Source: Streptococcus sp. SN-1 (GTDB taxonomy: Bacteria; Bacillota; Bacilli; Lactobacillales; Streptococcaceae). From it: a DNA stretch of 64,000 nt. Made by a program: the position numbers and the translations under genes. The notes beneath the pieces are model-generated. The model ran no database searches, had not been told where the DNA came from, and saw nothing but the letters and a program-made list of their open reading frames with translations. This document shows, in pieces, positions 45,301 to 63,582 of this stretch (position 1 is the stretch's first letter; each line of letters opens with the position of its first letter). The stretch spans positions 248,001 to 312,000 of the forward strand of contig NZ_AP028929.1 in NCBI RefSeq assembly GCF_041154385.1, in the 5' to 3' direction.

Positions 45301-48300
45301 AAAGTTGCAGAAATTGAGAAACGTCCTGAGTTAACAACAGAAGAAAAAACAGCTGCGAAAGCAGAAGCACGTAAATTGGCAGATGCAGCTAAAGCAAATG
45401 TTGATAAGGCAAAAACAAACAATAGAGTGGATACAGTTAAAGCTTCAGGCGTTGATGAAGTAGATGCTTACAGTCCAGCGGGTGTGGAAAAAGACACAGC
45501 TAAAAAAGCCGTAGAAGCCGCATTAAAAGCACAAGAAAAAGCTATCGATGCTAAAGCAGATTCAACAACAGAAGAAAAAGAAGCAGCTAAAGCAGACGCT
45601 AGAGCGAAAGCAGAAGCAGCCAAAGAAGCTATCGATAAAGCAGATTCTAATGCGAACGTAACAGCAGCTAAAGAAGCAGGAGTAGGAACAATTACACCTG
45701 TAGAACCAAAAGCAGAAGTAAAACCAGCCGCAAAACAAGCGATTGAAGATGCTTATACTGCAAAAGTTGCAGAAATTGAGAAACGTCCTGAGTTAACTAC
45801 TGAAGAAAAAGAAGCAGCCAAAGCAGAAGCACGTAAATTGGCAGATGCAGCAAAAGCAAATGTTGATAAAGCTAAAACAGACGATGCAGTAGAAACAGCA
45901 AAAGAATCTGGAACAGGAAAAGTCGAAGCAGTAGATCCAGCAGCTGTAGAAAAAGACACAGCTAAAAAGGCCGTAGAAGCCGCATTAAAAGCACAAGAAA
46001 AAGCGATTGACGCAAAAGCAGATTCAACAACAGAAGAAAAAGAAGCTGCTAAAGAAGAAGCTAGAGCGAAAGCAGAAGCAGCCAAAGAAGCCATCGATAA
46101 AGCAACTTCTAATGCGAACGTAACAGCAGCTAAAGAAGCAGGAGTAGGAACAATTACACCTGTAGAACCAAAAGCAGAAGTAAAACCAGCCGCAAAACAA
46201 GCGATTGAAGATGCTTATACTGCAAAAGTTGCAGAAATTGAGAAACGTCCTGAGTTAACAACAGAAGAAAAAACAGCTGCGAAAGCAGAAGCACGTAAAT
46301 TGGCAGATGCAGCTAAAGCAAATGTTGATAAGGCAAAAACAAACAATAGAGTGGATACAGTTAAAGCTTCAGGCGTTGATGAAGTAGATGCTTACAGTCC
46401 AGCGGGTGTGGAAAAAGACACAGCTAAAAAAGCCGTAGAAGCCGCATTAAAAGCACAAGAAAAAGCTATCGATGCTAAAGCAGATTCAACAACAGAAGAA
46501 AAAGAAGCAGCTAAAGCAGACGCTAGAGCGAAAGCAGAAGCAGCCAAAGAAGCTATCGATAAAGCAGATTCTAATGCGAACGTAACAGCAGCTAAAGAAG
46601 CAGGAGTAGGAACAATTACACCTGTAGAACCAAAAGCAGAAGTAAAACCAGCCGCAAAACAAGCGATTGAAGATGCTTATACTGCAAAAGTTGCAGAAAT
46701 TGAGAAACGTCCTGAGTTAACTACTGAAGAAAAAGAAGCAGCCAAAGCAGAAGCACGTAAATTGGCAGATGCAGCAAAAGCAAATGTTGATAAAGCTAAA
46801 ACAGACGATGCAGTAGAAACAGCAAAAGAATCTGGAACAGGAAAAGTCGAAGCAGTAGATCCAGCAGCTGTAGAAAAAGACACAGCTAAAAAGGCCGTAG
46901 AAGCCGCATTAAAAGCACAAGAAAAAGCGATTGACGCAAAAGCAGATTCAACAACAGAAGAAAAAGAAGCTGCTAAAGAAGAAGCTAGAGCGAAAGCAGA
47001 AGCAGCCAAAGAAGCCATCGATAAAGCAACTTCTAATGCGAACGTAACAGCAGCTAAAGAAGCAGGAGTAGGAACAATTACACCTGTAGAACCAAAAGCA
47101 GAAGTAAAACCAGCCGCAAAACAAGCGATTGAAGATGCTTATACTGCAAAAGTTGCAGAAATTGAGAAACGTCCTGAGTTAACAACAGAAGAAAAAACAG
47201 CTGCGAAAGCAGAAGCACGTAAATTGGCAGATGCAGCTAAAGCAAATGTTGATAAGGCAAAAACAAACAATAGAGTGGATACAGTTAAAGCTTCAGGCGT
47301 TGATGAAGTAGATGCTTACAGTCCAGCGGGTGTGGAAAAAGACACAGCTAAAAAAGCCGTAGAAGCCGCATTAAAAGCACAAGAAAAAGCTATCGATGCT
47401 AAAGCAGATTCAACAACAGAAGAAAAAGAAGCAGCTAAAGCAGACGCTAGAGCGAAAGCAGAAGCAGCCAAAGAAGCTATCGATAAAGCAGATTCTAATG
47501 CGAACGTAACAGCAGCTAAAGAAGCAGGAGTAGGAACAATTACACCTGTAGAACCAAAAGCAGAAGTAAAACCAGCCGCAAAACAAGCGATTGAAGATGC
47601 TTATACTGCAAAAGTTGCAGAAATTGAGAAACGTCCTGAGTTAACTACTGAAGAAAAAGAAGCAGCCAAAGCAGAAGCACGTAAATTGGCAGATGCAGCA
47701 AAAGCAAATGTTGATAAAGCTAAAACAGACGATGCAGTAGAAACAGCAAAAGAATCTGGAACAGGAAAAGTCGAAGCAGTAGATCCAGCAGCTGTAGAAA
47801 AAGACACAGCTAAAAAGGCCGTAGAAGCCGCATTAAAAGCACAAGAAAAAGCGATTGACGCAAAAGCAGATTCAACAACAGAAGAAAAAGAAGCTGCTAA
47901 AGAAGAAGCTAGAGCGAAAGCAGAAGCAGCCAAAGAAGCCATCGATAAAGCAACTTCTAATGCGAACGTAACAGCAGCTAAAGAAGCAGGAGTAGGAACA
48001 ATTACACCTGTAGAACCAAAAGCAGAAGTAAAACCAGCCGCAAAACAAGCGATTGAAGATGCTTATACTGCAAAAGTTGCAGAAATTGAGAAACGTCCTG
48101 AGTTAACTACTGAAGAAAAAGAAGCAGCCAAAGCAGAAGCACGTAAATTGGCAGATGCAGCAAAAGCAAATGTTGACAAAGCGAAAACAGACGATGCAGT
48201 AGCGGCAGCAGAAGACAAAGGAACTACAAAAGTAGCAGATGTAGATCCAGCAGCAAAAGCAAAACCAGCAGCAAAAGCGGCAGTAGATGCAGCATTGGCA

Positions 48301-51099: not shown

Positions 51100-51133
51100 T
51101 TGGTAGATTATTTGATAATTATCAGAGGTTAAA

Positions 51134-51236
51134 TAGAGATTCACTACACGTCAGCAGGCGTGAGAATCCCTGATTTTAAGCGATTCTTGAGATTTCAAAT
51201 TTCAATGTATTGCAATACAAATCAGCCGAATCTCTA
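51134..51236. repeat. Structured inverted-repeat region left of the element
   Basis: TAGAGATTC (51134-51142) pairs with GAATCTCTA (51228-51236). Inside lies the 14-bp palindrome TGTATTGCAATACA (51206-51219). The right arm overlaps the first integrase arm-like repeat. Confidence 0.5.
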
Positions 51237-51254
51237 CATTTTTCTCTACATTTT
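51231..51254 (+). other. Left integrase arm-type repeats (attL side)
   Basis: TCTCTACATTT at 51231-51241 and TCTCTACATTTT at 51243-51254. Confidence 0.55.
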
Positions 51255-51286
51255 CAGATAAATAAAAAGAGATTACGGATATAAGA

Positions 51287-51324
51287 GAAGAGCTACTTCA
51301 CAGATGAGTAGCTCTTCTTTTTTT
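51287..51324 (+). terminator. Terminator, 190 bp after the adhesin stop
   Basis: GAAGAGCTACT / AGTAGCTCTTC 11-bp perfect stem followed by a run of T. Confidence 0.85.
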
Positions 51325-51386
51325 ATTCTTTCACTTCAATTTATTCATGAAAATAGTAAAATCTTTTGAATGAATAATTGAAGTCC

Positions 51387-51416
51387 AAAATGCAGGCATT
51401 AATCAGCCTGCATTTT
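51387..51416 (-). terminator. Terminator of the minus-strand surface-protein operon
   Basis: AAAATGCAGGC / GCCTGCATTTT perfect 11-bp stem abutting the last stop codon; it could work in both directions. Confidence 0.75.
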
Positions 51417-51803
51417 CTATCTAGCATTTATAGAGTAAATATAAGCTATATAACAAGCAAAATCTCCTATTTGCTTTCTGTTATCCTCTATAGCATCAAA
51501 CCATGAAACGTCCACACCTTCTTGCCCTAGATAACGACTAAGAAGCTTTAGACAATATATTACTCGCTCATGCTTTGCTGTTCTACCTTCATCTTTTTGT
51601 TGACGCTCTTCACGTTCCCATAGCAACCACTGGCTACGAATATGAGCATAGCTTATACTAGCTTGCAAAAACTCAGACCATACTTCTAAAATTTCCTCAT
51701 CGTTACCAGTATTGTTTAGAATTGTCTGATGAATGTTTTGACATTCTTCAAAAGTTAGAGCATCTTTAGCACTTAAAAATGCTTCATAATTTATCAGTTG
51801 CAT
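51417..51803 (-). CDS. Hypothetical protein, last gene of the SEC10-like operon
   Basis: The 128-residue product appears soluble and mostly helical, with no signal peptide and no motif I recognise. It has several Trp and Tyr residues and an acidic character. A GAGGTG ribosome site precedes ATG 51803. It lies 40 nt downstream of the next minus-strand gene and ends at a terminator, so it closes the four-gene operon that begins with the LPXTG surface protein. The function is unknown. Confidence 0.7.
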   Translation of the reverse strand: MQLINYEAFLSAKDALTFEECQNIHQTILNNTGNDEEILEVWSEFLQASISYAHIRSQWLLWEREERQQKDEGRTAKHERVIYCLKLLSRYLGQEGVDVSWFDAIEDNRKQIGDFACYIAYIYSINAR

Positions 51804-51843
51804 TTTAACACCTCGTACTATTTATTTTTATATAAATAGCAAA

Positions 51844-52404
51844 CTAATCTTCAGATACACTATTTGATTCAATTTCTTTCGTCATTGTCGTAAACCCTTG
51901 CGACCAAATAGATTTTACACTTTCACCAATTGGTTTCCCGTCCCGTTCTTCCACTTCAATTATTAGATTATCACTCTTTATAAATTCTCTAAGATTAGGC
52001 CTAAATCTCATTATAACTGCCACATCTTGCATTCTACCACTTACTAACAAACTACCATTTTTATAATAGTCTATCCCATATAATCTTTCTGGTACTCGAT
52101 AACTTTTATCCTTGTAGTCTGGGAACTTTGCATTGTCAATTTCTTCAAGAGGCGTATCTATTTGTTTACAATAGTCTTTAACTTTCCTAATCAGCTCACT
52201 AAACCTTTCTAGAGGCACTTTTTTGAACGAAAGTATACGATAAACTCTTACACCACGTTGTCTAACATATTCTTCAAACGCTTCTCGTTCTCCTGCACTT
52301 TGTTTATAATAGTTCTTTATCACAAGTTTATCATTCTCTAGGATATATTCTAATTCTGAGTATTTTGTTACATAATTGACTACGTTTCTAAAAAATAACA
52401 TCAT
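51844..52404 (-). CDS. Hypothetical protein in the SEC10-like operon
   Basis: The 186-residue product appears soluble with mixed alpha/beta prediction and many charged residues. It has no signal peptide and no family I can name. Start ATG 52404 has GGAAAGG at 6-nt spacing; a TTG 5 codons upstream lies in that ribosome site and is less likely. A 26-bp near-palindrome sits between this gene and the preceding one. Its role may relate to the surface protein with which it is co-transcribed. Confidence 0.7.
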   Translation of the reverse strand: MMLFFRNVVNYVTKYSELEYILENDKLVIKNYYKQSAGEREAFEEYVRQRGVRVYRILSFKKVPLERFSELIRKVKDYCKQIDTPLEEIDNAKFPDYKDKSYRVPERLYGIDYYKNGSLLVSGRMQDVAVIMRFRPNLREFIKSDNLIIEVEERDGKPIGESVKSIWSQGFTTMTKEIESNSVSED

Positions 52405-52422
52405 TATACACCTTTCCAAAGA

Positions 52423-52448
52423 AACTACCTAGTTATAACTAGATAGTT
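52423..52448. repeat. Near-perfect intercistronic palindrome
   Basis: It runs from AACTACCTAG to CTAGATAGTT around a central TTATAA, with one mismatched pair. It lies in the gap between two operon genes. Confidence 0.5.
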
Positions 52449-52456
52449 CCCATTTT

Positions 52457-53155
52457 TTATTCCCCAAAGACTCCTATTCTCACTGTACGATGTAATTTCT
52501 GAGTCTCTAATAGATGAATTGTTTGAATGACAGATTGATAAGTAGCATTTGCTTGAATAGAAGCAAGACTCTTTTGCATAACTTCTTGACTGTACTCTAT
52601 CTTATCACGGTGTTTCTCCTCGGCCAATAAGTTTGCTGCCTCTTTAAAATTATCTGCTCTATAAGTTTCTAAATAGCTATAAAGTAAATAAAGGTCATTC
52701 ATATTAAAGTAAGTTTCTGGAATTTCTCTTTTATATGCCAAAAACTGTTCATCTTTCATCAACTCAATACCTTTTTGGCGATAAGCATTAGAAGCATCAT
52801 TATTCGCAGCATTTGTAAATTCTTTTTTTGCAATGTGCTTATACACAGCTTTTACAATCAGAACAAGTGGGGAAAACAGAAGTTGGAAAACCACATAACC
52901 AAGCACACCTCCAATAATATATTCGGTTAATGATAGTACAGTTCCTTGAAGTATTCCTAATAAGGCACAAAATGCTATAAAACCTAATACACTTAAATTA
53001 TATACTTTTTTAAGCTTGCCATAGTTCCCCATAATACCACTATATGCTTTATTTTGTTCTGCTGAAATAGCTTTATTCAAGTCAGATACAGCTTTCAAAA
53101 CTTGGAAACTATATCCAAACATTTCAATCAATTGTTCTCTACTATATTTGTTCAT
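52457..53155 (-). CDS. Membrane protein of unknown function in the SEC10-like operon
   Basis: The 232-residue protein has two hydrophobic segments in the middle (about residues 55-72 and 80-105) flanked by helical, charged cytoplasmic-type regions. There is no signal peptide or sortase signal. AGGAG precedes ATG 53155, 33 nt after the surface-protein stop. The long C-terminal helix might bind a partner. I do not recognise a family. Confidence 0.7.
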   Translation of the reverse strand: MNKYSREQLIEMFGYSFQVLKAVSDLNKAISAEQNKAYSGIMGNYGKLKKVYNLSVLGFIAFCALLGILQGTVLSLTEYIIGGVLGYVVFQLLFSPLVLIVKAVYKHIAKKEFTNAANNDASNAYRQKGIELMKDEQFLAYKREIPETYFNMNDLYLLYSYLETYRADNFKEAANLLAEEKHRDKIEYSQEVMQKSLASIQANATYQSVIQTIHLLETQKLHRTVRIGVFGE

Positions 53156-53188
53156 ACTTCAAATCTCCTATAATTAATCACCCTTAAT

Positions 53189-56029
53189 TTAGTTTTTCCT
53201 CTTAATAAATAATCCTGCTAGACCAATCATTGCTAATAATCCGTAGCCAACTGTAACAATTGAATTTGCTACCCTAGAATTTTCTCCTGTATTTGGTAGA
53301 GCATGTTGTTCTGCTATCTTGTCTGCTGATTTATCTGCCGGCTTGTCTGCTGACTTATCCGCCGGCTTATCTGCTGGCTTATCTGCTGATTTATCTGCTG
53401 GCTTATCTGCTGGTTTATCCGCTGGTTTATCCGCTGGTTTATCCGCTGGTTTATCCGCTGGTTTATCCGCTGGTTTATCCGCTGGTTTATCCGCTGGTTT
53501 ATCCGCTGGCTTATCCGCTGGTTTATCCGCTGGCTTATCCGCTGGTTTATCCGCTGGCTTATCTGCTGGCTTATCTGCTGGCTTGTCCGCTGGATTATCA
53601 ATGATAGCACTTGGATCCAACTCTGGTAATTCATCCTCAACTGGTGCGTCTTTTGGTGTTGCTCCGATACCGTCAGGATTTTGTTTTGTATTCAAATCAC
53701 TAGGGATATCAGCAGTGATATCCAATTCTGGCAATTCATCTACGGTTGGAGCTACTTTTGGTGTCGCACCGATACCGTCAGGATTTTGTTTTGTAGTCAA
53801 ATCACTTGGAATGTCTGCTGTGATATCCAATTCTGGCAATTCATCTACTGTTGGGGCTACTTTCGGTGTTGCTGAAATGACACGGTTACCATCAGTATAT
53901 ACATTTAGCATCTTATCGATTGAAAAGATATCTGATTTGTATTTGTGGTCAGCTTGTGCTTGTGTCAAACGAGCTTTGGCATCCGCTAAGTCTTGCTCTG
54001 CAACTGTGATGCGTTGTTCCACGTTTGTTCTATCTGCTTCTGCCTGTTTTAAACTTGCACGCAATTGTGGTAATTGCGCGTGGACACGCATAGCATTATC
54101 ACGTTTGCTTGTTGCCGCATCAATTTCACTTTGAATTGTGTTGATACGTGCAGTTACATCGTTTACACGAGCAGTTGCTTTATCCAACTCTTTTTGTTTT
54201 TGAATAACAGCATCTGCTTTGTCTTGAGCGGTCGCTGTAAGTGTAGCTAAATCAGATTTTGCTTGATTTAGAGCTGTTGTCGCATTTGTACGCGCTGTAG
54301 CAATATCATTCAATTGATTGTTTAACGCATCCAACTCTTGAGTCAAATCAGCTTTCTTCGCAACTAATACGTCACGTTCGCGTTCTTGTGTAGCTTTTTG
54401 AGCTTTCAAAGCGTCCAACTCTGCTTGCATTTTTGGTCGGTCATCGATGATTTGACGTTTAACAAACACATAATGAGTGTCTGCGATAAACTTCATCTTT
54501 TTACCATAGAATGTTGGGTTCATTGGGTCATCTTGTTTGAAGTTGTTATTGTTATTCCAATAATCCTTCTCATCTTGGCTTTGATTTAGGGAATAGAACA
54601 TTTGATTATCTTCGTCCCATCCATAGGTTGAACCTTTGTGCGCACTAGCATTGAATGAACCGAAATAAGTTGTTTTGTCTTTTCCGTCAATGGTTGAAAT
54701 GGCAAGGCCCATTTTACCACCTGTTGGTGTTAATAAGTTCTTGCGGTGTCCGTAGTTTAAACCTCTAACATTATTGTAGTCACTATACCAACCTAATAGC
54801 ATTTCATAGGCTAATGTTTCGTTAGTTACAATGTGGTCAAATGTTAAATATTCACCTTCACGACTGATAATTTGACCGTATGCGCCACCAACGATGTTTT
54901 CGACGTTCTGGTCGGGTTGCACTCTTTCGATGTAGCCCGGTTTGTTTGTTAATGTTGTTCTGTGTGTCAAGATGCCCGTATTCTGCATTTCATCAGCACG
55001 TTTTTGTGCGTATGAAAGGTACTCATCGTCAACCACCATATCACCCTTTAAATTGTTATTAACACGTAGTTGATTAAGCAATTTGACAAAGGCTTCTGAA
55101 ATACCTTTGTTGTCAACTTTGTAACGATACGCTGGTCGTTCTTTTAATTTTCGAGCTACACGGTCAAATGGTTCTTTCTTATAATCCGCTAAATACTCTG
55201 TGAAGTCAATCATGTCTTTAGTTGCATCAATTTCTTTGATGTCGACACCTTGGAAATTAACTGGTTCCATTTGGTTGTTACGGAAGAATCCATGGTTATA
55301 CTCATAATCATTAAGATTATCATGAGCGGTGTGATTACGTTCATCAGGGTTTAAATCTGTTGAAATAACTTTAACTTTGTAGCTATCGATTTCCCCTTGT
55401 TTAGCAGCAATTTTAGCGTCTGTAGCTGTGATTTGCGCACCTTTAGCATTCAAATCATTATCTATGTTTGAAATTTTGCTAGTTGTGTTTGTGATGTTTT
55501 TACGTACATTAGTGTCTGTGATTGCGTCAAGGTCTGCTTGTTTCGTATCCACATCAGCTTTCTTAGTGTCACGAGCATTATCAGCCTCTGTTTTTGCTGT
55601 GTTAGCATTGTCTAGTGCTATATGCGCATCACGTTCACCATCTTTAGCGGTATTCAAATCGTTTGTTGCGTTTGTCTTGTCTGAAGTTTTGCTAGTGATA
55701 ATATCGTTTTGAGCATTGATAATTTTGTTTGCGTTATTAGCGGTGTCGATGTCTTTATTGATTGAGTCAATTTTGTCATCAGCGTTTACCTTGTCAGCTT
55801 TTGCTCGGTCAACAGTATCTTGTTTTGCGTCGACATCAGCTTTTGCCTTATCTACATCAGCTTTAGCATTTTTAACGTCTTGTTCAGTAACATAAACAGG
55901 GGTCGTCTTCACAGTTGGCTTGGGTTTACCAGAATCAACCTCTTCTGCATGGGCAGTTGTATTTACAGCACCAGCACCTACAAAAATAGTTGTTAAACCA
56001 GCACCTAACAAAATATCTTTTTTCTTCAT
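53189..56029 (-). CDS. SEC10/PgrA-like surface exclusion-type LPXTG protein
   Basis: This 946-residue wall protein has a signal peptide (about 1-28, ending THAEE) and coiled coils at about 50-215 and 530-700. Between them is a CAP/SCP-like domain (about 310-465) with LLNQLRVNNNL, THRTTLTN and GHRKNLL. Then come three 34-residue ATPKVAPTVDELPELD repeats, 23 PADK-type tetrapeptides, LPNTG, a membrane helix and KRKN. This layout is that of SEC10/PgrA surface exclusion proteins. In enterococcal plasmids, PrgA blocks uptake of a second copy by the host cell. That role here is inferred. GGAGCC precedes the start; it is divergent from an Rgg gene. Confidence 0.85.
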   Translation of the reverse strand: MKKKDILLGAGLTTIFVGAGAVNTTAHAEEVDSGKPKPTVKTTPVYVTEQDVKNAKADVDKAKADVDAKQDTVDRAKADKVNADDKIDSINKDIDTANNANKIINAQNDIITSKTSDKTNATNDLNTAKDGERDAHIALDNANTAKTEADNARDTKKADVDTKQADLDAITDTNVRKNITNTTSKISNIDNDLNAKGAQITATDAKIAAKQGEIDSYKVKVISTDLNPDERNHTAHDNLNDYEYNHGFFRNNQMEPVNFQGVDIKEIDATKDMIDFTEYLADYKKEPFDRVARKLKERPAYRYKVDNKGISEAFVKLLNQLRVNNNLKGDMVVDDEYLSYAQKRADEMQNTGILTHRTTLTNKPGYIERVQPDQNVENIVGGAYGQIISREGEYLTFDHIVTNETLAYEMLLGWYSDYNNVRGLNYGHRKNLLTPTGGKMGLAISTIDGKDKTTYFGSFNASAHKGSTYGWDEDNQMFYSLNQSQDEKDYWNNNNNFKQDDPMNPTFYGKKMKFIADTHYVFVKRQIIDDRPKMQAELDALKAQKATQERERDVLVAKKADLTQELDALNNQLNDIATARTNATTALNQAKSDLATLTATAQDKADAVIQKQKELDKATARVNDVTARINTIQSEIDAATSKRDNAMRVHAQLPQLRASLKQAEADRTNVEQRITVAEQDLADAKARLTQAQADHKYKSDIFSIDKMLNVYTDGNRVISATPKVAPTVDELPELDITADIPSDLTTKQNPDGIGATPKVAPTVDELPELDITADIPSDLNTKQNPDGIGATPKDAPVEDELPELDPSAIIDNPADKPADKPADKPADKPADKPADKPADKPADKPADKPADKPADKPADKPADKPADKPADKPADKPADKSADKPADKPADKSADKPADKSADKIAEQHALPNTGENSRVANSIVTVGYGLLAMIGLAGLFIKRKN
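53319..53594 (-). repeat. 12-bp minisatellite, 23 copies, in the surface protein gene
   Basis: Units such as TTATCCGCTGGT (plus strand) repeat 23 times, encoding (P/S)ADK tetrapeptides in the wall-spanning region. Copy number is likely to vary between isolates. Confidence 0.9.
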
Positions 56030-56055
56030 ATTGGCTCCTTTTTATTTTTTTGTAT

Positions 56056-56061
56056 AGTATA
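56056..56061 (-). promoter_or_regulatory. Candidate -10 of the SEC10-like operon
   Basis: TATACT on the minus strand lies inside the palindrome GTATAGTATAC (56052-56062). There is no good -35, as expected for an activator-dependent promoter. An inverted repeat CTACT / AGTAG (56141-56156) lies further upstream. Confidence 0.4.
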
Positions 56062-56184
56062 CAGTAAATAATCCCCTTTTTGGAACTTTCTATTGAAAAC
56101 AGTATAATTTTATTCCTTATCTTGATTTTAGAATAAAAATCTACTAAAAACAGTAGTTTTTCCCAAAAATGGAGAAATTTAAGT

Positions 56185-56190
56185 TATAAT
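56185..56190 (+). promoter_or_regulatory. Candidate -10 of the Rgg gene
   Basis: TATAAT at 56185-56190, 28 nt before ATG 56219; the -35 is weak. Confidence 0.45.
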
Positions 56191-56218
56191 AAAACCAATA
56201 AAACTCAAGGAGACTATC

Positions 56219-57148
56219 ATGGAATTCAAACACTATGGAGAAATTATCCACAAAATCCGTCAAGATCGTAATATGACCCTCAAAGAGGCTGCTGGAGATG
56301 TCATTACTCCCAATAACCTCAGTCGCTTTGAAAAAGGATTATCTTCTATCAAAGTCGATACTTTTTTTGAAATTTTGAGTAGATTTAATTTAGATGGAGA
56401 CGACTTTAATGAAGTTCTTCATATTCAAGATGAGAATGCCCAAAGAGCAAAGCAAATTATAAATGCATTAATTAAAAATGATAGAATAAAAGCTAGACAA
56501 ATACTAGGAAAGAAAAGTGACTGGGGAAATATCATAGACTATTACACACTAAAATTAGCTATTTTACAAACTCAAGGAAAGAAAATAGATGAATTGGCTC
56601 CTGATGAAGTAGAAGCTATTCATTACTTGGTCGACTATATATTTAGTATTGATACTCTTTATATTCGTGATTTTACTGTTATTGAAATTCTTTTGGGACA
56701 TAAGGTTCAATGTTTTGAGTTAAAATTCCTTGAATACCTCGAAAAGATAATTCTTAAAGGATTGGAAGAAACTAAGTATGTAACTTATGATTTTCCTTAC
56801 AGATATGCTATTACTGGAATGTTTTTAGTTAGAACATATTCTCGCTATGGCTATTATGATAAAGCTGAAAAACTCATCTATAAGTTGAAGATAAATATAT
56901 CTGAAAAATTCTCTCTTGAGTATTCAATATATCCCCTAATTTATTTAAACATATTCGAAGTTTTCAATCTACTACGACAAAATAATCCTAAGGCGATTGA
57001 ACTAGCTAATACTGTTCTTCACTACATTGATGCCCAAAACAACCTCTTCCCACTAGCAAAGATGTTTGAAGAAAAGAACACATTCGTCAAAGAAGTTCAA
57101 CGACTAAATAAAACTGGCATTCCATTCCCTACGGAAGATGAAGAATAA
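56219..57148 (+). CDS. Rgg/GadR/MutR-family transcriptional regulator
   Basis: The 309-residue protein has an N-terminal XRE helix-turn-helix (about 5-62: IIHKIRQDRNMTLKEAAGDVITPNNLSRFEKGLSSIKVDTFFEIL) and a long all-helical repeat domain that in Rgg proteins binds short peptide pheromones. AAGGAG precedes the start. It is divergent from the SEC10-like surface protein operon and is the obvious candidate regulator. No short hydrophobic peptide gene was seen next to it, so it may act as a stand-alone regulator or use a peptide from elsewhere. Confidence 0.88.
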   Translation: MEFKHYGEIIHKIRQDRNMTLKEAAGDVITPNNLSRFEKGLSSIKVDTFFEILSRFNLDGDDFNEVLHIQDENAQRAKQIINALIKNDRIKARQILGKKSDWGNIIDYYTLKLAILQTQGKKIDELAPDEVEAIHYLVDYIFSIDTLYIRDFTVIEILLGHKVQCFELKFLEYLEKIILKGLEETKYVTYDFPYRYAITGMFLVRTYSRYGYYDKAEKLIYKLKINISEKFSLEYSIYPLIYLNIFEVFNLLRQNNPKAIELANTVLHYIDAQNNLFPLAKMFEEKNTFVKEVQRLNKTGIPFPTEDEE

Positions 57149-57186
57149 CTATTAACACCAGTTTAGAGCAACATGTTTATAACTTC

Positions 57187-57224
57187 AAAAGCACCAAAGT
57201 CACTTTAGACTCTGGTGCTTTTTT
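57187..57224 (+). terminator. Terminator after the Rgg gene
   Basis: AAAAGCACCA ... TGGTGCTTTTTT hairpin. Confidence 0.75.
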
Positions 57225-57238
57225 GACTTGATTTTAAA

Positions 57239-57270
57239 GAAAAAAACTCACCAAGCTTAGTTGATGAGTT
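57239..57270 (-). terminator. Terminator of the decayed permease gene
   Basis: On the minus strand, AACTCATCAA / TTGGTGAGTT followed by TTTTT; it lies 6 nt past the fragment's stop. Confidence 0.7.
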
Positions 57271-57276
57271 CTTAAT

Positions 57277-57588
57277 CTATTTTCTAAATTTCCACTGGCT
57301 ATAAATCCCAAAACCGATAATCCAGATAGCTGATCCGATTGCTCCTACAAAGGTAGACTCTTGTAAAAAGAGGGTTACAAAGACAAAGACAAAGAAAAGC
57401 ATAGTTAAGGGATTTAGGAAACGATAATGGGGCATGAGATAGCCATCCGCCATAAAGTCCTGCGACTTGCGGTATTTAAGGTGAGCCACCATAATCAAGA
57501 TATAAATGGCGATATAGACACCTGATGATGATGCCGTAATCAAGACAAAGGCATCCGAAACTCCTGGCAAGACCTGACGTGGATTTTG
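57277..57588 (-). pseudogene. Amino acid permease (APC family), C-terminal fragment
   Basis: Only about 103 codons remain, equivalent to the last three membrane segments of an APC-type amino acid permease (LPGVSDAFVLITASSSGVYIAIYI, then YLMPHYRFLNPLTMLFFVFVFVTLF). The frame meets a TGA at 57589-57591 on its upstream side, and the sequence beyond is AT-rich and unlike a permease. The original terminator is kept. The missing N-terminal part is not found on the far side of the element. The junction near 57589 marks an insertion or deletion. Confidence 0.75.
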
Positions 57589-57730
57589 TCAATTATTTTT
57601 CACGAATATTACTATAGATTAAAGTTGAAAAATTTTAATTTTTTCTTTTAGAAAACAAAAAAACAGCCAAGAAAAACTCAACTGTTTGCATTTTTAATAT
57701 TGCATGAAAATTTATGCAACAACCCATTCT

Positions 57731-57780
57731 AGTTAGTTTCAGGTACCTGAAACTAACTTATCTAACGGGGCTACGCCCCG
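57731..57780 (+). other. Candidate oriT / nick region
   Basis: A perfect 28-bp palindrome (57731-57758; AGTTAGTTTC to GAAACTAACT around AGGTACCT) is followed 7 nt later by the hairpin CGGGGC-TAC-GCCCCG (57766-57780). Palindrome plus GC hairpin with a short exposed loop is typical of sites cut by HUH relaxases or Rep proteins. Confidence 0.5.
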
Positions 57781-57823
57781 ACTCCCCTTTTTCTTTATGA
57801 AAAAAATTTTTTTCTTATCTCTT

Positions 57824-58007
<184 letters not shown>

Positions 58008-58027
58008 GTCATGAGATAAATCAACAT

Positions 58028-58048
58028 ATAGTTGTTAAATACAACTAT
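58028..58048 (+). promoter_or_regulatory. Operator-like inverted repeat before the transfer genes
   Basis: ATAGTTGT-TAAAT-ACAACTAT, a perfect 8-bp inverted repeat 52 nt upstream of ATG 58101. Confidence 0.45.
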
Positions 58049-58100
58049 TACTCCTGTAGAATAAAAATTATTCTCCTCCTTAATAAGAAAGGTCAAAAAT

Positions 58101-58424
58101 ATGACATTCACAGTCAAATCATCAAGCTATTATAGCTCAGAAAATGCTGAGAAACTTCTTGGAAATGAAACAACTTATATTGTAGGACTGCAAATAGAAA
58201 CACAGTATGAATATAAAGACGATAAGCGGACAGATAAAGTTATTGGTTATCAGATTTGGATTGCTACGGATACTCATAATCCTTTTAAAGTGAAGTTCCT
58301 TCCAGATAACAAACCAGATTTATCTGAATTTAACATTGGTGAGAAAATAGCATTTGATAAATTAGAAGCAATTCAGATTAAATCAAATGCGTATTTCCGT
58401 GCCACAGGCATTCACAAAGCTTAG
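58101..58424 (+). CDS. Small conserved-type protein at the head of the transfer module
   Basis: The 107-residue product appears soluble and beta-rich, with no membrane segment. Its position, directly before the FtsK/TcpA-like gene (10-nt gap), is that of the YdcP/DUF961 proteins (Orf22/Orf23) of Tn916-like elements, but the sequence similarity is not clear to me. AAGAAAGG precedes ATG 58101. It may act as an accessory DNA-binding factor in transfer; this is inference from position. Confidence 0.6.
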   Translation: MTFTVKSSSYYSSENAEKLLGNETTYIVGLQIETQYEYKDDKRTDKVIGYQIWIATDTHNPFKVKFLPDNKPDLSEFNIGEKIAFDKLEAIQIKSNAYFRATGIHKA

Positions 58425-58434
58425 GGGGTAGTTT

Positions 58435-59544
58435 ATGACTATCCCTATTAAAATGCCTATGTCTGAAAATGAATTAGCTAAATTCATTACAAGCAATCTC
58501 AACAATACACTAGATATCAACGGAGAAACGAGCTTTACAAACTCTTTCTCCATTTCTTTAGAGGCAGAAGATAAGGGAATGTTTTTCATTCCCAATCTTC
58601 CTGTTTCCTATGTTTTAGATAAAAATCTGTATTTTAAGATAGCAGATATCTGTTCTGGCATCCTTTACCCTTATAAAACGCTTATGTTACAAAGTAATGC
58701 AATTTTTATCCCCTACAAGACAGGTGACCCTAATCTTGCTAGAGGTTTTTTCTTCCCTTGGGTAAATGGTATTCCAACTCGACTAACTATTCCTGATATC
58801 CAACATTTTATAAATCAAGAAGTTAGTGAGATTAGGGTTCCGCTCATGTCAAACCAAGTTAGTATCAATCTAAATGATGTTGTTCATTTAGCTATCAGTG
58901 GTTCATCTGGTTCAGGAAAAAGTTATTTCCTAGAATACCTTATTCGGTGTATTCGGAAAATAACTGACGATATTGTAGCAGTAGACCCTAAACGTGCCGA
59001 TATTTATTCTCTAGGTCGTGAATTAAATCTGTCTGTCCTGTCTCCGAAAAGAGGGGCTAACTTAAATAGTTTTATCACAGAAGTAAATGAAATTCTGGGG
59101 GATGCTATCAATAAGATTTACGAACGTCAAGAAATACTTTTAGAAAACCCAAAAGCTACATTAAAACGCAAATATATTATCATAGATGAGCTACTTGCTC
59201 TTGTTCAGGGTTCTTCAAAACAAGCACGAGATACGTTTGCACAACTATTAGGAACTGTGGCTCTCCTAGGTCGAGCTACCAAAGTTTCACTTATCCTAGT
59301 TTCCCAACGTTTTGATGCTACCGCATTTGGAGGAAATCTAGCAGTTAGAGAACAAATTAACTGTTCTATTATTTTGGGAGAGATAAATACTAACACCACT
59401 CAGTTTTTATTGCCAAACGCTCATATTGAAAATATTGTTGTTCCTAGCGGAATAGGGACAGGAATTGTCAAATTTAGTGATGGAAAGCATGACAGCAACA
59501 TCATGCCACTCCTCACCCCATACTATAACAAGAGGTGCTTATGA
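58435..59544 (+). CDS. FtsK/SpoIIIE-type coupling ATPase (TcpA-like)
   Basis: The 369-residue protein has an FtsK/HerA-type ATPase domain: Walker [12 protein letters not shown] (about 154-164), Walker B KYIIIDELLALVQ (about 245-257) and the later LILVSQRFDA. Such proteins recruit the relaxosome to a conjugation channel (coupling protein, TcpA family) in Gram-positive elements. Here it is short and lacks obvious N-terminal membrane helices; the following gene supplies a membrane protein. AGGGGG precedes the ATG. The next gene overlaps it by 4 nt (ATGA). Confidence 0.85.
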   Translation: MTIPIKMPMSENELAKFITSNLNNTLDINGETSFTNSFSISLEAEDKGMFFIPNLPVSYVLDKNLYFKIADICSGILYPYKTLMLQSNAIFIPYKTGDPNLARGFFFPWVNGIPTRLTIPDIQHFINQEVSEIRVPLMSNQVSINLNDVVHLAISGSSGSGKSYFLEYLIRCIRKITDDIVAVDPKRADIYSLGRELNLSVLSPKRGANLNSFITEVNEILGDAINKIYERQEILLENPKATLKRKYIIIDELLALVQGSSKQARDTFAQLLGTVALLGRATKVSLILVSQRFDATAFGGNLAVREQINCSIILGEINTNTTQFLLPNAHIENIVVPSGIGTGIVKFSDGKHDSNIMPLLTPYYNKRCL

Positions 59545-60083
59545 TAAACAAGTATAATCTATTCAAAATCTTATGTATAGGAACTGTAGTAAGCTTTTTC
59601 CCTATATTTATACTTATCTTGATTCAACAGAATCTGAACATTGAAATTAATTATCAAAATGTTGTTTTTCTTTTCTATCCTTTGATAATTTTTTCAATAC
59701 TACTTTTCTCTTTTTTCCTTTATCACTGGTTTAAAAGTGATATAAAATACATGCTCAAAGGATTACGAGCAACCTACGAACTGAGAAAATTTGCCCATTT
59801 TGAATCCGATTCTATTCTCGATACTCAAAATAAACAGATTTCTACTCAAAAATCAATCGTCAACAAAGCCAATCGTTCTTTGTTAACCTTATCGATGATT
59901 TATACAGAAGATGGGGCTATATTACGGTGGAAAGTTCCAAACAATCACGAAAGTTTCTTGAAAGTACAAGAAATATTCCCTGCTATTAAAGCAAAATTAC
60001 ACACTATAGAACCCGAATTGTTCTTTACCAACATAGCGCCTAGTAACGGTCGTTGGTATCAAGCAACAGGCTCTTACAATTAA
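59541..60083 (+). CDS. Two-helix membrane protein coupled to the TcpA-like gene
   Basis: The 180-residue product has two strong membrane segments at about 8-28 and 40-64 and a cytoplasmic C-terminal domain of about 115 residues. The ATG overlaps the TcpA-like stop (ATGA), which implies coupled translation. Since the ATPase appears to lack membrane helices, this protein may anchor it; this is inference. No family recognised. A 14-bp terminator stem follows directly. Confidence 0.7.
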   Translation: MINKYNLFKILCIGTVVSFFPIFILILIQQNLNIEINYQNVVFLFYPLIIFSILLFSFFLYHWFKSDIKYMLKGLRATYELRKFAHFESDSILDTQNKQISTQKSIVNKANRSLLTLSMIYTEDGAILRWKVPNNHESFLKVQEIFPAIKAKLHTIEPELFFTNIAPSNGRWYQATGSYN

Positions 60084-60088
60084 AATCG

Positions 60089-60135
60089 GTGGAAGGACTT
60101 TGTCAAAGACAAAAAGTCCTTCCACCATTTTTTTA
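60089..60135 (+). terminator. Terminator after the membrane protein gene
   Basis: GGTGGAAGGACTTT / AAAGTCCTTCCACC perfect 14-bp stem followed by T8. Confidence 0.88.
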
Positions 60136-60142
60136 TATTACA

Positions 60143-60240
60143 AAACTGTGCCAATGATACTACTTACTCTAAATATCCTTAATACTAACAATCCTGCGAG
60201 ACTGGTCTTGGCATTGTCTCGCATTCAAACTGTGCCAATG
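60143..60240 (+). other. Repeat and stem-loop cluster upstream of rep
   Basis: AAACTGTGCCAATG occurs twice (60143-60156 and 60227-60240). Between them is the hairpin GCGAGAC-13 nt-GTCTCGC (60196-60222), whose loop holds TTGGCA, complementary to TGCCAA in the direct repeats. This may be an origin or a control element of rep. Confidence 0.5.
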
Positions 60241-60272
60241 TGCCAAAAACAAAACGAAAGGAAATTCTTGAA

Positions 60273-61469
60273 ATGTCTTCAGAGAAAAAAACAAATAAAA
60301 AAATCCCTAAACAGCGTGCAATCATGTATACACAACAAATGCGACTAGCTATTTTATCTGATTGGAAAGAAGAAATTGATAGAATCGTTAAGCTATTAGA
60401 GCCATTACTCTGGGCAGGCATTTTACATGATAAAGATGTTAATGAAGATGGAGAAACTGTAGAACCCCATATTCATCTCATGATGTATTTCAAACATGCT
60501 CGTAGCCCACATAGCATAGCTTGGGAAATTAATGAACGAAATGGTAAGCGTGAAGATTCTCAAATCGAACGATTAGAATTCTTCAAGCATCCTAATAATG
60601 GTTTTAGTTATCTTGTTCACCAAACTAAAGATGCTCAAAATAAATATCAGTACCCTATTTCGGAAGTAATAAGTAACTTTGATTTTGCTAAAAAATTAGA
60701 AAACATTCGAAAACAAGTAGAGCGAAACCAAAGTAAAAAAGAAGGGGAACTAATACGAGAATATCTAGATATGCTTTATGACGGTTTATTAACTCTAGAA
60801 GAGATTGAATCTGAGCTAACGGGAAGTCAATATGCAAAAGCAAGTACGCGACTTAAAGCTGTTGCCGAAAAAAGGCAAGAAAGATTAGGAAGAGAATTCC
60901 TGAATCGTATGAAGTATGAACAAAAGACAAAACAAGTAGTCTATATCTATGGTGAGTCTGGACTTGGTAAGACAAGACTGGCTAAGACTTATGCAGAAAA
61001 TAAAAATACCTCTTATTTTGTAACAGGCTCAAGTCGCGATCCTTTTCAGAGTTATCAAAACCAGGAAACTATCATTATTGACGAACTGCGACCAGATAGC
61101 TTTCGATATGATGACCTTTTGAAAATTCTAGACCCTTATAATTTCGATGTTTTCTTACCTTCTAGATATATAGATAAAGCATTAACCGCTGAACTAATCT
61201 TCATAACTAGCCCTTACTCACCAAAGGAGTTGTATGATAATTTTCAAACCAGTAAACGAATTGACCGTTTCGACCAGCTAGAACGACGAATACAAACAGC
61301 CATACTAGTTGAAAAGGATAATATCTTTTATACACACTATAACAATGAGAGTCGGGAATACGAAAAAGATGACAGCAACTTTTTCACGAACCCCTTTGAG
61401 TCTCAGTCAATACATCGTGCTAATAGCTTCTTCACACAGTTTGAAACAACTATTCAAAGAAAGGAATAA
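60273..61469 (+). CDS. Rep/relaxase with HUH endonuclease and SF3 helicase domains
   Basis: The 398-residue initiator has an N-terminal HUH domain: PHIHLMM (about 64-70) holds the metal-binding His pair, and GFSYLVH (about 109-115) the likely catalytic Tyr. A C-terminal superfamily 3 helicase domain has Walker A GESGLGKT (about 227-234) and Walker B IIIDEL (about 267-272). This is the layout of Rep_2/RNA_helicase-type initiators of streptococcal elements and of CRESS-DNA virus Reps. It should nick the origin and unwind DNA for rolling-circle replication or transfer. AAAGGA precedes ATG 60273; an upstream GTG 60240 lies in a repeat. Confidence 0.88.
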   Translation: MSSEKKTNKKIPKQRAIMYTQQMRLAILSDWKEEIDRIVKLLEPLLWAGILHDKDVNEDGETVEPHIHLMMYFKHARSPHSIAWEINERNGKREDSQIERLEFFKHPNNGFSYLVHQTKDAQNKYQYPISEVISNFDFAKKLENIRKQVERNQSKKEGELIREYLDMLYDGLLTLEEIESELTGSQYAKASTRLKAVAEKRQERLGREFLNRMKYEQKTKQVVYIYGESGLGKTRLAKTYAENKNTSYFVTGSSRDPFQSYQNQETIIIDELRPDSFRYDDLLKILDPYNFDVFLPSRYIDKALTAELIFITSPYSPKELYDNFQTSKRIDRFDQLERRIQTAILVEKDNIFYTHYNNESREYEKDDSNFFTNPFESQSIHRANSFFTQFETTIQRKE

Positions 61470-61474
61470 CAATA

Positions 61475-61723
61475 ATGAACTCAGAACTATTTGAAATTAA
61501 AAACCTACTACTAAATCTCTTACAAATCCTACAACAGGAAACCCACATCTTCAATTATTGTGGTCTATATACCCAAAAAGACCTGTTGAATCTCCTTCAA
61601 ATTTCTCCGAATACATTGAAATCTTGGGAAGAGAAAGGACTAAAACGACTGGAACCACCTATAGAAGGAACCAGAACTGTTTACTATAAACTTGAAAATG
61701 TTCTCCAATTCTTAGAGAAATAA
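61475..61723 (+). CDS. Excisionase-like helix-turn-helix protein
   Basis: The 82-residue protein has a MerR-type helix-turn-helix: YTQKDLLNLLQISPNTLKSWEEKGLKRLEPPIEGTRTVYYKLENVLQFLEK (about 27-82), the form typical of excisionases and element regulators. It is 5 nt after rep and upstream of the integrase gene, the usual place for Xis. It would bend the att DNA to favour excision. AAAGGA precedes the ATG. A terminator separates it from int. Confidence 0.82.
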   Translation: MNSELFEIKNLLLNLLQILQQETHIFNYCGLYTQKDLLNLLQISPNTLKSWEEKGLKRLEPPIEGTRTVYYKLENVLQFLEK

Positions 61724-61733
61724 CATGAATTAT

Positions 61734-61786
61734 GCTAAAATAGAACTGTCTGTTATGTATAGAAAATGTTCTATTTTAGCCTTTTT
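61734..61786 (+). terminator. Terminator between xis and int
   Basis: GCTAAAATAGAAC / GTTCTATTTTAGC, a perfect 13-bp stem, followed by CTTTTTATTT. Confidence 0.8.
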
Positions 61787-61815
61787 ATTTTATATCCGTA
61801 TAATGAAAGGGCATT

Positions 61816-63081
61816 ATGACATCTGAAACTATAACTTACAATAACAAAAAAGTTATTAAAAAAACAAATTCAAACGGAGAGGTTAGTTATATTTTACGAG
61901 GCCTTTACTTAGGTATCGATGAAAAAACAGGCAAACAAGTAACAACGTCTATAACAGCTAAAACACTACGGCAACTTGACCGTAAAATCCTAACGGCTAG
62001 AGTTAATTTTGAAAAAGCAGGTGGAACGAGGAAAGAAGATAAACAATTATCCACTTTTTCTGAACTTGCAGAAGAATGGTTCAATAATTATCAAGTTTGG
62101 GTTACTTCTCATAATACAATCAATAGAGTGAAGGGATACGTATATAATTACATCATCCCTGCATTCGGGGATTACATTCCTGAAAAAATCACATCTGCCG
62201 ATATTCAAAGATGGGTTAACAATCTCGCCCAAAAAGCTAGAACATCGATTGAATCAGGGAAAAAACGTGCTGAAAAAGGTAGTGCAAAAGACTTTGGAGC
62301 AGTCACTCACAAACTTAGTGATATTTTCGATTTTGGCATCACACATTTTGGATTAACTAAAAACCCAGTGAAAACTATTAAAATCCCTCCAAAGCCTAAA
62401 TTAGCTTCTCGTAGAACTATGGTCTTACATGATGAAGAATTAAAAACATGGTTAGCATTCTTAAAAACTTTACCTAATAACAGAGCTAATCGACGATTTA
62501 TTACCATCTGCAATTCCTTACTCGCTTCTGCATTGCGAATCAATGAACTTCTAGCATTAGAAATAAATGACTTGGATTTCACAAACAATGAAATTATTGT
62601 AAATAAAACATTGATGTGGAAAAGTGCCAATAAGAAACTTGGTACTAAAGGATGTATGATTTGTAAACCAACCGCAAAAACCGATTCTGGTAATCGTCAG
62701 GTTCCCGTTCCAAGCTCTACTCTCACTGACCTTAGGGATTTCTACACAGAAATGAATAACTATTTCAAAAAACAAGGTCTACCTCAATCCAAGTTAATCT
62801 TTCCAACGATTTATGGAAATTATATGTGCGATAGAAACGAACGTGCTACTTTAAAAAAACGACTAACTTCTCTTGGCTTACCTGATTACGGTTTCCATAT
62901 TTTCAGACATACTCATGCTTCAATGATGTTAAATGCTGGGGCAAACTGGAAAGAACTACAAGTTCGTATGGGACATAAATCTATCAACACAACTATGGAT
63001 ACATACGCCGAGTTAGCACCGAAGAAGAAATTAGAGGCAGTAAATATTTATTTAGATAAAATAGCTGAACTATCTACTTAA
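61816..63081 (+). CDS. int: Tyrosine recombinase (integrase) of the element
   Basis: The 421-residue integrase has an N-terminal arm-binding part (about 1-60) and a core-binding domain (about 75-150, FSELAEEWFNNYQ). The catalytic domain (about 195-410) shows the residues SALRINELLALE (Arg about 241), HIFRHTHASMM (His/Arg about 361-364), GHKS and the nucleophile in TMDTYAEL (Tyr about 396). GAAAGGG precedes ATG 61816; TATAAT (61799-61804) is too close to serve as a normal promoter. TCTCTACATTT arm-like repeats start 3 nt after the stop. Confidence 0.93.
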   Translation: MTSETITYNNKKVIKKTNSNGEVSYILRGLYLGIDEKTGKQVTTSITAKTLRQLDRKILTARVNFEKAGGTRKEDKQLSTFSELAEEWFNNYQVWVTSHNTINRVKGYVYNYIIPAFGDYIPEKITSADIQRWVNNLAQKARTSIESGKKRAEKGSAKDFGAVTHKLSDIFDFGITHFGLTKNPVKTIKIPPKPKLASRRTMVLHDEELKTWLAFLKTLPNNRANRRFITICNSLLASALRINELLALEINDLDFTNNEIIVNKTLMWKSANKKLGTKGCMICKPTAKTDSGNRQVPVPSSTLTDLRDFYTEMNNYFKKQGLPQSKLIFPTIYGNYMCDRNERATLKKRLTSLGLPDYGFHIFRHTHASMMLNAGANWKELQVRMGHKSINTTMDTYAELAPKKKLEAVNIYLDKIAELST

Positions 63082-63084
63082 TCG

Positions 63085-63110
63085 TCTCTACATTTGTCTC
63101 TACATTTTTT
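63085..63110 (+). other. Right integrase arm-type repeats (attR side)
   Basis: TCTCTACATTT at 63085-63095 and TCTCTACATTTTTT at 63097-63110, the same 12-bp spacing as the left pair. Confidence 0.55.
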
Positions 63111-63582
63111 CTTCAATAAATTATAAAGCCTTTAAAATAAAGGTTTTGAGGGGTTATATAGAACTCTGTCTACTCCTTACAGATGATAAGTCCGATTTTC
63201 AAAGCTTAAACAAGTACCTCTCACAAGAAAATCTCCTAGCAGGAAAGCCTGCTAGGAGATTTTTGATACAGGTAAATTGAGTAGTGAATCTAAATTCTAA
63301 ATTTCATGGAATTTCATGAGGTAATGAGAGGTTTAGGTCAACTTGATTTCAAAATTTTTAGGTTTAGGGATGACTATTCATATAGAGATAGGTAATTTTT
63401 CAAAGATGGTAGTCATATAGAGGACGATAGTTGTTAAGTAATGTTTTAATTGATAATAGTTGCTATTTGATGATGTTTTATGTCAAAGTAAATAAATAGG
63501 ATTTTTATTTTTGACAAATGATAACATATGATGTAATGATTTTTAGGGAAAAGCTATTTGGAATAAAGGAGTTGCTCAAATA
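63111..63582. other. Intergenic region right of the element
   Basis: It contains the weak core candidate GGTTATATAGA (63152-63162), a strong terminator and two copies of TCATATAGAG (about 63377 and 63413). No credible gene is seen on either strand. Confidence 0.45.
63227..63265 (+). terminator. Strong terminator right of the element
   Basis: AAATCTCCTAGCAGG-AAAG-CCTGCTAGGAGATTT, a 15-bp perfect stem followed by T. Before insertion it may have ended the adhesin transcript. Confidence 0.85.

What the first reader, a model, noticed from the sequence alone, without database searches (positions are those of the whole stretch)
51231..63110. Likely 11.9-kb integrative mobilizable element bounded by matching integrase arm repeats
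Two TCTCTACATTT repeats, each pair with 12-bp spacing and the same orientation, lie right after int and again 11.9 kb to the left, just past the adhesin gene. Tyrosine integrases of Gram-positive elements use such paired arm sites at both ends. The interval holds int, xis, rep, a coupling ATPase and surface cargo, but no mating-pore genes. Core sites are not obvious; GGTTA(A/T)ATAGA at both ends is the best candidate.
Basis: partly seen in the sequence, partly recalled or inferred. Interest (0 to 1): 0.72.

Follow-up and report, generated by a model that had tools for sequence, protein, structure and literature searches.

The report
Mobilizable island parked beside adhesin gene
A 12-kb mobile DNA island, of a known streptococcal type that usually sits at the end of a ribosomal protein gene, lies here at an unusual spot just after a surface-adhesin gene and carries a surface protein shaped like one that blocks DNA transfer between cells.

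Summary
The interval is one integrative mobilizable element (IME), window 51127-63176 plus a 7-bp overlap (about 12.06 kb). Related genomes carry the empty site, flanks joined where predicted. Three sister elements (int, xis, rep, coupling ATPase 99-100% identical) sit at the 3' end of rpmG (S. mitis SK564, 17/34) or in tandem behind another element (S. hohhotensis). The paired TCTCTACATTT repeats behave as integrase arm sites: in the 32 of 49 relatives whose left end was found they lie 109-111 bp from the left core and match left to right, and their sequence follows the integrase tree. The proposed core was wrong; exchange occurs at TATCAGA/TTACAGA. The window copy is at a secondary site, after an LPXTG adhesin stop codon. 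A second secondary insertion (G087, empty in G233) fits a short overlap that tolerates mismatches. The 57.58-kb boundary is an internal cargo junction: a regulator plus broken permease piece that lie together on other strains' chromosomes. The LPXTG cargo protein resembles enterococcal PrgA (surface exclusion) in fold; function untested. Overall: a new member of a known kind.

The parts
51120..51126 (+). attL exchange region TATCAGA (chromosomal version); element starts at 51127
   Evidence: Empty site GATAAT-TATCAGA-TGATAAG in G137 against attL GATAAT-TATCAGA-GGTTAAATAG
51127..51136 (+). GGTTAAATAG: element-borne tail that would restore the last codons and stop of rpmG (..TEVK*) at the usual site
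   Evidence: Sister element in S. mitis SK564 reads ..HVVFTEVK* across this junction
51231..51253 (+). left integrase arm pair TCTCTACATTT T TCTCTACATTT
   Evidence: fixed distance from the core and left-right match across the family
51283..51321 (+). terminator-like hairpin carried by the element's left end, downstream of the adhesin gene
   Evidence: consensus scan; 8 terminator-like sites found against 6.2 sd 2.3 in shuffles, so no excess overall
51417..51803 (-). cargo, 128 aa, unknown
   Evidence: no family; 95-97% identical in the three sisters
51844..52419 (-). cargo, 191 aa, unknown; different allele (25% identity) in two of three sisters
52457..53155 (-). cargo, 232 aa, unknown; absent from the three sisters, 99% identical copy at the permease locus of G197
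53189..56029 (-). cargo: 946-aa LPXTG protein, CAP domain at the tip of a long helical stalk (PrgA-like fold)
   Evidence: Pfam CAP and Gram_pos_anchor; model; fold comparison
56219..57148 (+). cargo: HTH regulator, 309 aa; absent from the three sisters
57232..57587 (-). fragment of an amino-acid-permease-like gene with an internal deletion of about 360 bp (57232-57573 joined to 57565-57587)
   Evidence: the permease name is read from the translation, no Pfam family at E<=0.001
57731..57779 (+). 28-bp perfect palindrome plus GGGGC-TAC-GCCCC hairpin: candidate replication/transfer origin (inference)
   Evidence: kept in the three sisters with paired changes in the palindrome
58101..58424 (+). 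107-aa protein of the mobilization module
   Evidence: 96-100% in sisters, about 30% homologs in other elements of the family
58435..59544 (+). FtsK/TcpA-like coupling ATPase, 369 aa
   Evidence: PF01580 25.5 bits, cut-off 24
59535..60083 (+). 182-aa protein, two hydrophobic stretches (by eye)
60240..61469 (+). Rep_2 + helicase initiator, presumed relaxase, 409 aa
   Evidence: PF01719 53.7 bits (cut-off 24.6) and PF00910 30.3 bits (cut-off 21.5)
61475..61723 (+). MerR-like excisionase candidate (Xis), 82 aa
   Evidence: PF13411 over cut-off; PHROG excisionase matches
61816..63081 (+). tyrosine integrase, 421 aa
   Evidence: PF00589 76.4 bits, PF14659
63085..63107 (+). right integrase arm pair TCTCTACATTT G TCTCTACATTT
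63177..63183 (+). attR exchange region TTACAGA (element version); element ends at 63176
63230..63264 (+). adhesin gene's own terminator-like hairpin, now 12 kb away from the gene
   Evidence: Read by eye and at the empty sites; the scan does not list it

Best explanation
An integrative mobilizable element of the streptococcal rpmG type. The tyrosine integrase binds the paired 11-bp arm repeats near both ends and recombines a roughly 7-bp exchange region (element TTACAGA) with a target; Xis helps excision. The Rep_2-helicase protein (as nicking relaxase and perhaps replication initiator) and the TcpA-like ATPase hand the circle to the mating pore of a helper element, since it has no pore genes. 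Its usual target is the 3' end of rpmG, where its left end restores the last codons. In this strain, where rpmG holds another element of the same integrase family, it sits at a secondary site, TATCAGA, between an LPXTG adhesin stop codon and that gene's terminator. Its cargo was rebuilt by taking up a chromosomal segment (surface protein, regulator, part of a permease). Shown by sequence: bounds, empty site, arm sites, sister elements, secondary site, co-location of the cargo segment on other chromosomes. Inferred: excision, mobilization, relaxase role, direction of cargo capture.
For: Empty sites: G137 and G153 (whole 701-bp query), G179 (116-701) and G093 (78-701); sequences. Sister elements at rpmG or in tandem. 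No rpmG-type core inside the element except at its ends. Arm pairs: left end located for 32 of 49 distinct integrases, core-to-arm distance 109-111 bp in all 32, left-right match mean 19.7 of 23 against 16.0 in 2000 shuffles (maximum 17.6); arm class needs 6 changes on the integrase tree (minimum 5), shuffled mean 30.0, 0 of 200 as low, 48 of 49 rows labelled. Of those 32, 22 lie at rpmG. Second secondary site with its empty counterpart. Module families over cut-off. rpmG of this genome occupied by an element with a 68% identical integrase.
Against: No excision or transfer was observed, and none can be from sequence. No VirB4-type ATPase over the PF12846 cut-off was found in this genome (one model only; the single weak match is the element's own ATPase), so no helper is evident here. 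Left ends were not located for 17 of 49 relatives. Seven of the 32 located ends are neither at rpmG nor recognised as tandem (window, G087 and five unresolved), so specificity is not absolute. Near-copies among relatives inflate the arm-site statistics.
Confidence: 0.93

Rival explanations
1. Two elements side by side: a decayed cargo-only element (51.1-57.6 kb) and a small 5.6-kb element (57.6-63.2 kb).
For: The 57.58-kb point is a real discontinuity: the module resumes at 57578-57581 in the three sisters after other sequence.
Against: No rpmG-type core between the ends in the window or in the three sisters; arm pairs only at the two outer ends; the sisters carry left end, CAP gene and module in one element; empty sites lack the whole interval.
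Confidence: 0.03
2. An immobile relic: the copy at the secondary site can no longer excise because attL and attR differ in the exchange region.
For: attL TATCAGA and attR TTACAGA differ at two of seven positions; no helper found by one model.
Against: int, xis, rep and ATPase are intact and 99-100% identical to sisters; the two secondary insertions show that this integrase family recombines mismatched exchange regions.
Confidence: 0.25
3. A satellite prophage that is packaged by a helper phage rather than conjugated.
For: Integrase and excisionase match PHROG integration families.
Against: No match to a phage structural family among the nine module and cargo proteins other than the integrase beyond weak ATPase-type matches to terminase models; the Rep_2-helicase plus FtsK-like pair is the published signature of streptococcal IMEs (PMC5357655, passages).
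Confidence: 0.04

Closest known systems
Streptococcal IMEs with Rel_PF01719-PF00910 relaxase and TcpA coupling protein (Coluzzi et al. 2017, PMC5357655; passages seen)
   Same: Tyrosine integrase, PF01719+PF00910 initiator, FtsK/TcpA-like ATPase upstream of it, no mating-pore genes, size near the reported IME mean of 10 kb, tandem accretion at rpmG.
   Different: Copy at a secondary site beside an adhesin gene (secondary sites are noted for other IMEs in that paper); PrgA-like LPXTG cargo.
Integrase family Tyr_6 ('rpmG opposite', PMC5357655, passages)
   Same: Targets the rpmG 3' end with int at the far end of the element from rpmG.
   Different: Not compared with the reference sequences of that family.
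Tn916 integrase system (low specificity; PMC4701971 passage; coupling sequences recalled)
   Same: Paired arm repeats at both ends; mismatched exchange region tolerated at secondary sites.
   Different: Strong preference for one site (22 of 32 located ends at rpmG); exchange region conserved.
Enterococcal PrgA, surface exclusion protein of pCF10 (structure 6z9l/6z9k; PMC10588982 passages)
   Different: 15% identity; below the curated cut-off of TIGR04320 (49.1 of 70 bits); encoded on a mobilizable element without mating genes and also at chromosomal loci.

Membership tests
Integrative mobilizable element (IME) | Own integrase and att sites with definable ends | tested here: met
Integrative mobilizable element (IME) | Relaxase (here the Rep_2-helicase type proposed in PMC5357655) | tested here: met
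   PF01719 and PF00910 over cut-off; nicking activity not tested
Integrative mobilizable element (IME) | No mating-pore (VirB4) gene | tested here: met
   The ORFs and families of 51.1-63.2 kb include none; PF12846 over cut-off nowhere in the genome (one model)
Integrative mobilizable element (IME) | Excision to a circle and transfer with a helper | not testable with these tools
   Needs culture
Integrase family Tyr_6 (rpmG opposite) | Insertion at the rpmG 3' end with int at the opposite end | tested here: met
   Met by 22 of the 32 relatives whose left end was located, including sisters L134 and L135; the window copy itself is not at rpmG
Integrase family Tyr_6 (rpmG opposite) | Sequence clustering with the published Tyr_6 members | not tested
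   Reference sequences were not fetched
TcpA coupling protein | FtsK_SpoIIIE catalytic domain (PF01580) | tested here: met
   25.5 bits, cut-off 24; a narrow pass
PrgA/Sec10 surface exclusion proteins | TIGR04320 curated cut-off of 70 bits | tested here: not met
   49.1 bits; of 7 relatives scanned, 2 match at E<=1e-8, neither at the cut-off
PrgA/Sec10 surface exclusion proteins | CAP domain presented on a long coiled-coil stalk, LPXTG anchored | tested here: met
PrgA/Sec10 surface exclusion proteins | Lowers receipt of conjugative DNA | not testable with these tools
   Needs mating assays

The most novel reading that the evidence does not exclude
The mobilizable element arms its host with a PrgA-type exclusion protein on the cell surface: having no mating pore of its own, it lets or blocks matings by controlling cell-cell contact, keeping rival conjugative elements and sister IMEs out, and it refreshes this shield by swapping in versions from a chromosomal surface-protein locus (CAP gene, regulator, permease) that exists in other mitis-group strains.
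Probability: 0.25. Interest if true: 0.65.

Novelty: new member of a known kind. Interest (0 to 1): 0.42.

Why it matters
It gives an IME with proven ends, its empty site, sister copies at the usual site and two natural secondary insertions, so integrase specificity, overlap and arm binding can be tested directly. The arm-pair rule (two 11-bp repeats, 12-bp period, 109-111 bp inside the left core, matching the pair after int) is a simple way to delimit elements of this large group: integrases at least 61% identical over nearly full length are in 30 of the 147 Streptococcus genomes searched. If the cargo protein is an exclusion factor, a non-conjugative element would be controlling conjugation.

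Tried and rejected

MicroCIME scars at the same site in other genomes: inserts of roughly 150 bp found after the LPXTG stop codon in L203-L206 (G129, G089, G258, G260) share a repeated sequence that I recognise from memory as RUP-like; they lack the arm pairs and rpmG tail on reading. Rejected as IME scars.

Accretion of two elements at 57.58 kb: no internal core. Rejected.

A defence island in the cargo: PADLOC gives no convincing hit for the three unknown cargo proteins (best E 0.0027, a methyltransferase model). Not pursued.

Rep on plasmids: 22 of 72,556 plasmid records match, all under 60% identity, 6 covering at least 80% of the query; so no near plasmid version in that collection.

PrgA by sequence: phmmer of the window protein and a 14-row profile find no PrgA chain in the PDB; only low-complexity or coiled-coil matches. 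The PrgA link rests on fold and architecture.

Other mistakes: one search used the wrong stretch of L112 (its module instead of its flank), so its 34 of 147 says only that related modules exist; one search used the right flank. My first wish to count secondary sites family-wide failed: five ends (L111, L104, L156, L114, L158) are unresolved.
Full report
Four exact TCTCTACATTT copies form two pairs of 12-bp period at 51231-51253 and 63085-63107. As a paired motif they are the only two in the 2.11-Mb genome, with none for the reversed pattern. The second motif, GGTTA(A/T)ATAGA, exists but is not the core.

Bounds. A search of the right flank in 147 Streptococcus genomes matched 90, and in G093 and G137 the match began at window 63180-63181. 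Alignment showed that G137:C15 and G093:C8 carry the adhesin 3' end joined directly to that point: 51132|63180 and 51121|63181. A 701-bp empty-site query taken from G137 matched 37 of 284 genomes at E<=1e-20. It ran across the junction in one piece at the same locus in G137 itself and G153 (whole query), G179 (116-701) and G093 (78-701), and was split only in the window genome (1-342 and 333-701, 12 kb apart). In G045 and G211 the query matched in separate pieces with the core region intact. Many other matches stop near query position 418; I read these as 3' ends of other LPXTG genes that share the same tail, of which the window genome itself has one (L212).

Exchange region. Empty GATAAT-TATCAGA-TGATAAG; attL GATAAT-TATCAGA-GGTTAAATAG; attR CTACTCC-TTACAGA-TGATAAG. 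The element is therefore 51127-63176 plus one 7-bp region, 12,057 bp.

Sister elements. Integrases 99-100% identical lie in S. hohhotensis IMAU99199 (L133), S. mitis SK564 (L134) and S. mitis 17/34 (L135). All three share the left end (from about 51123, or 51099 in L133), the CAP-domain gene (about 88-90% DNA identity) and 57578/57581-63189/63191 (97-98%). Two sit at the 3' end of rpmG, reading ..KLRKHVVFTEVK* across the junction; the third sits behind another element of the family. The left end GGTTAAATAG supplies the last codons of rpmG.

Arm sites. Sixty-three full-length relatives reduce to 49 distinct ones. The left end could be located without using the right arms in 32 of 49; 16 lack a left core in the DNA held and 1 lacks a pair. 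In all 32 the left pair lies 109-111 bp from the core. Left and right pairs of one element match at 19.7 of 23 positions on average against 16.0 when shuffled (maximum of 2000 shuffles 17.6). Five of the 32 score only 8-13 because the automatic right pair was taken out of phase; they were kept. Arm class needs 6 changes on the integrase tree against 30.0 for shuffled labels (one row unlabelled). Near-copies contribute to both numbers.

Target use. Of the 32, 22 are at rpmG, 2 were recognised by script as tandem, a third (L119) is tandem by eye because its left flank is the right end of the neighbouring element, and 7 are other: the window, L112 and five unresolved. For L112 (G087) the empty counterpart is in G233: empty GTTGTTT-TATTAGA-AAATAAAG, attL GTTGTTT-TTACAGA-AGTTAAATAG, attR CACAACCT-TATTAGA-AAATAAAG. 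Here the element's version of the exchange region is in attL, in the window it is in attR; exchange points on either side of the mismatches are what a staggered overlap of about 7 bp predicts. This is an inference from two cases, in the manner recalled for Tn916 coupling sequences. In the window genome rpmG holds another element whose integrase is 68% identical (L108). The G087 insertion also has an LPXTG-type gene end in its right flank on reading.

Effect at the site. Insertion is 20 bp after the adhesin stop codon and moves the adhesin's own hairpin (63230-63264, by eye, not in the scan) 12 kb away. The element's left end has a terminator-like hairpin at 51283-51321, which may take its place (inference).

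Module. FtsK_SpoIIIE ATPase (25.5 bits, cut-off 24); Rep_OBD plus RNA_helicase initiator, MerR-like candidate Xis and tyrosine integrase. The published class Rel_PF01719-PF00910 with TcpA has this make-up (PMC5357655, passages); the review PMC5704250 (passages) counts 15 such IMEs, 4 with TcpA. A 28-bp palindrome and hairpin at 57731-57779 are kept in the three sisters with paired changes: a candidate origin. No VirB4-type gene passes the PF12846 cut-off in the genome; the control rang in 10 of 14 genomes, over the cut-off in 3.

Cargo. The 56.04-57.58 kb piece (regulator plus permease fragment) is absent from the three sisters. A chromosomal order 232-aa gene, CAP gene, regulator, permease matches window 52454-57573 in two overlapping pieces at 88% in G197:C6; G106 has CAP gene, regulator and permease; G031 and G092 have regulator and permease; the window genome's own permease locus has only the permease. 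The window fragment joins two permease stretches about 360 bp apart in intact copies at a short shared sequence. A broken chromosomal gene inside the element argues that the segment moved from chromosome to element (inference).

Verdict. A new member of a known kind, well delimited, at a secondary site, with interesting cargo. Searches for print on the combination returned listings in which I saw no paper describing this element; subscription papers are mostly not held.

Noticed in passing
57731-57779: 28-bp perfect palindrome followed by a GGGGC-TAC-GCCCC hairpin, kept in three sister elements with paired changes (CAGGTACCTG, CGGGTACCCG, CGGTACCG): candidate replication or transfer origin.
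   Followed up: partly
51844-52419: This cargo slot holds a 98% identical protein in S. mitis SK564 but only a 25% identical one in S. mitis 17/34 and S. hohhotensis, between nearly identical neighbours.
   Followed up: no
L203, L204, L205, L206 (G129, G089, G258, G260): Inserts of roughly 150 bp with a shared repeated sequence (RUP-like from memory) sit at the same place after an LPXTG stop codon, so this 3' end is hit by different mobile DNA.
   Followed up: partly
L112 (G087), right flank from about 17070: The second secondary insertion also has an LPXTG-type gene end close by (LPNT motif on reading).
   Followed up: no
L249 (G197:C6) and L248 (G106:C11): Chromosomal locus with CAP-domain LPXTG gene, HTH regulator and permease in a row; present in some mitis-group genomes and not at the window genome's own permease locus.
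   Followed up: partly
42307-51099: 2930-aa LPXTG protein with long near-identical repeats; chromosomal, next to the insertion.
   Followed up: no
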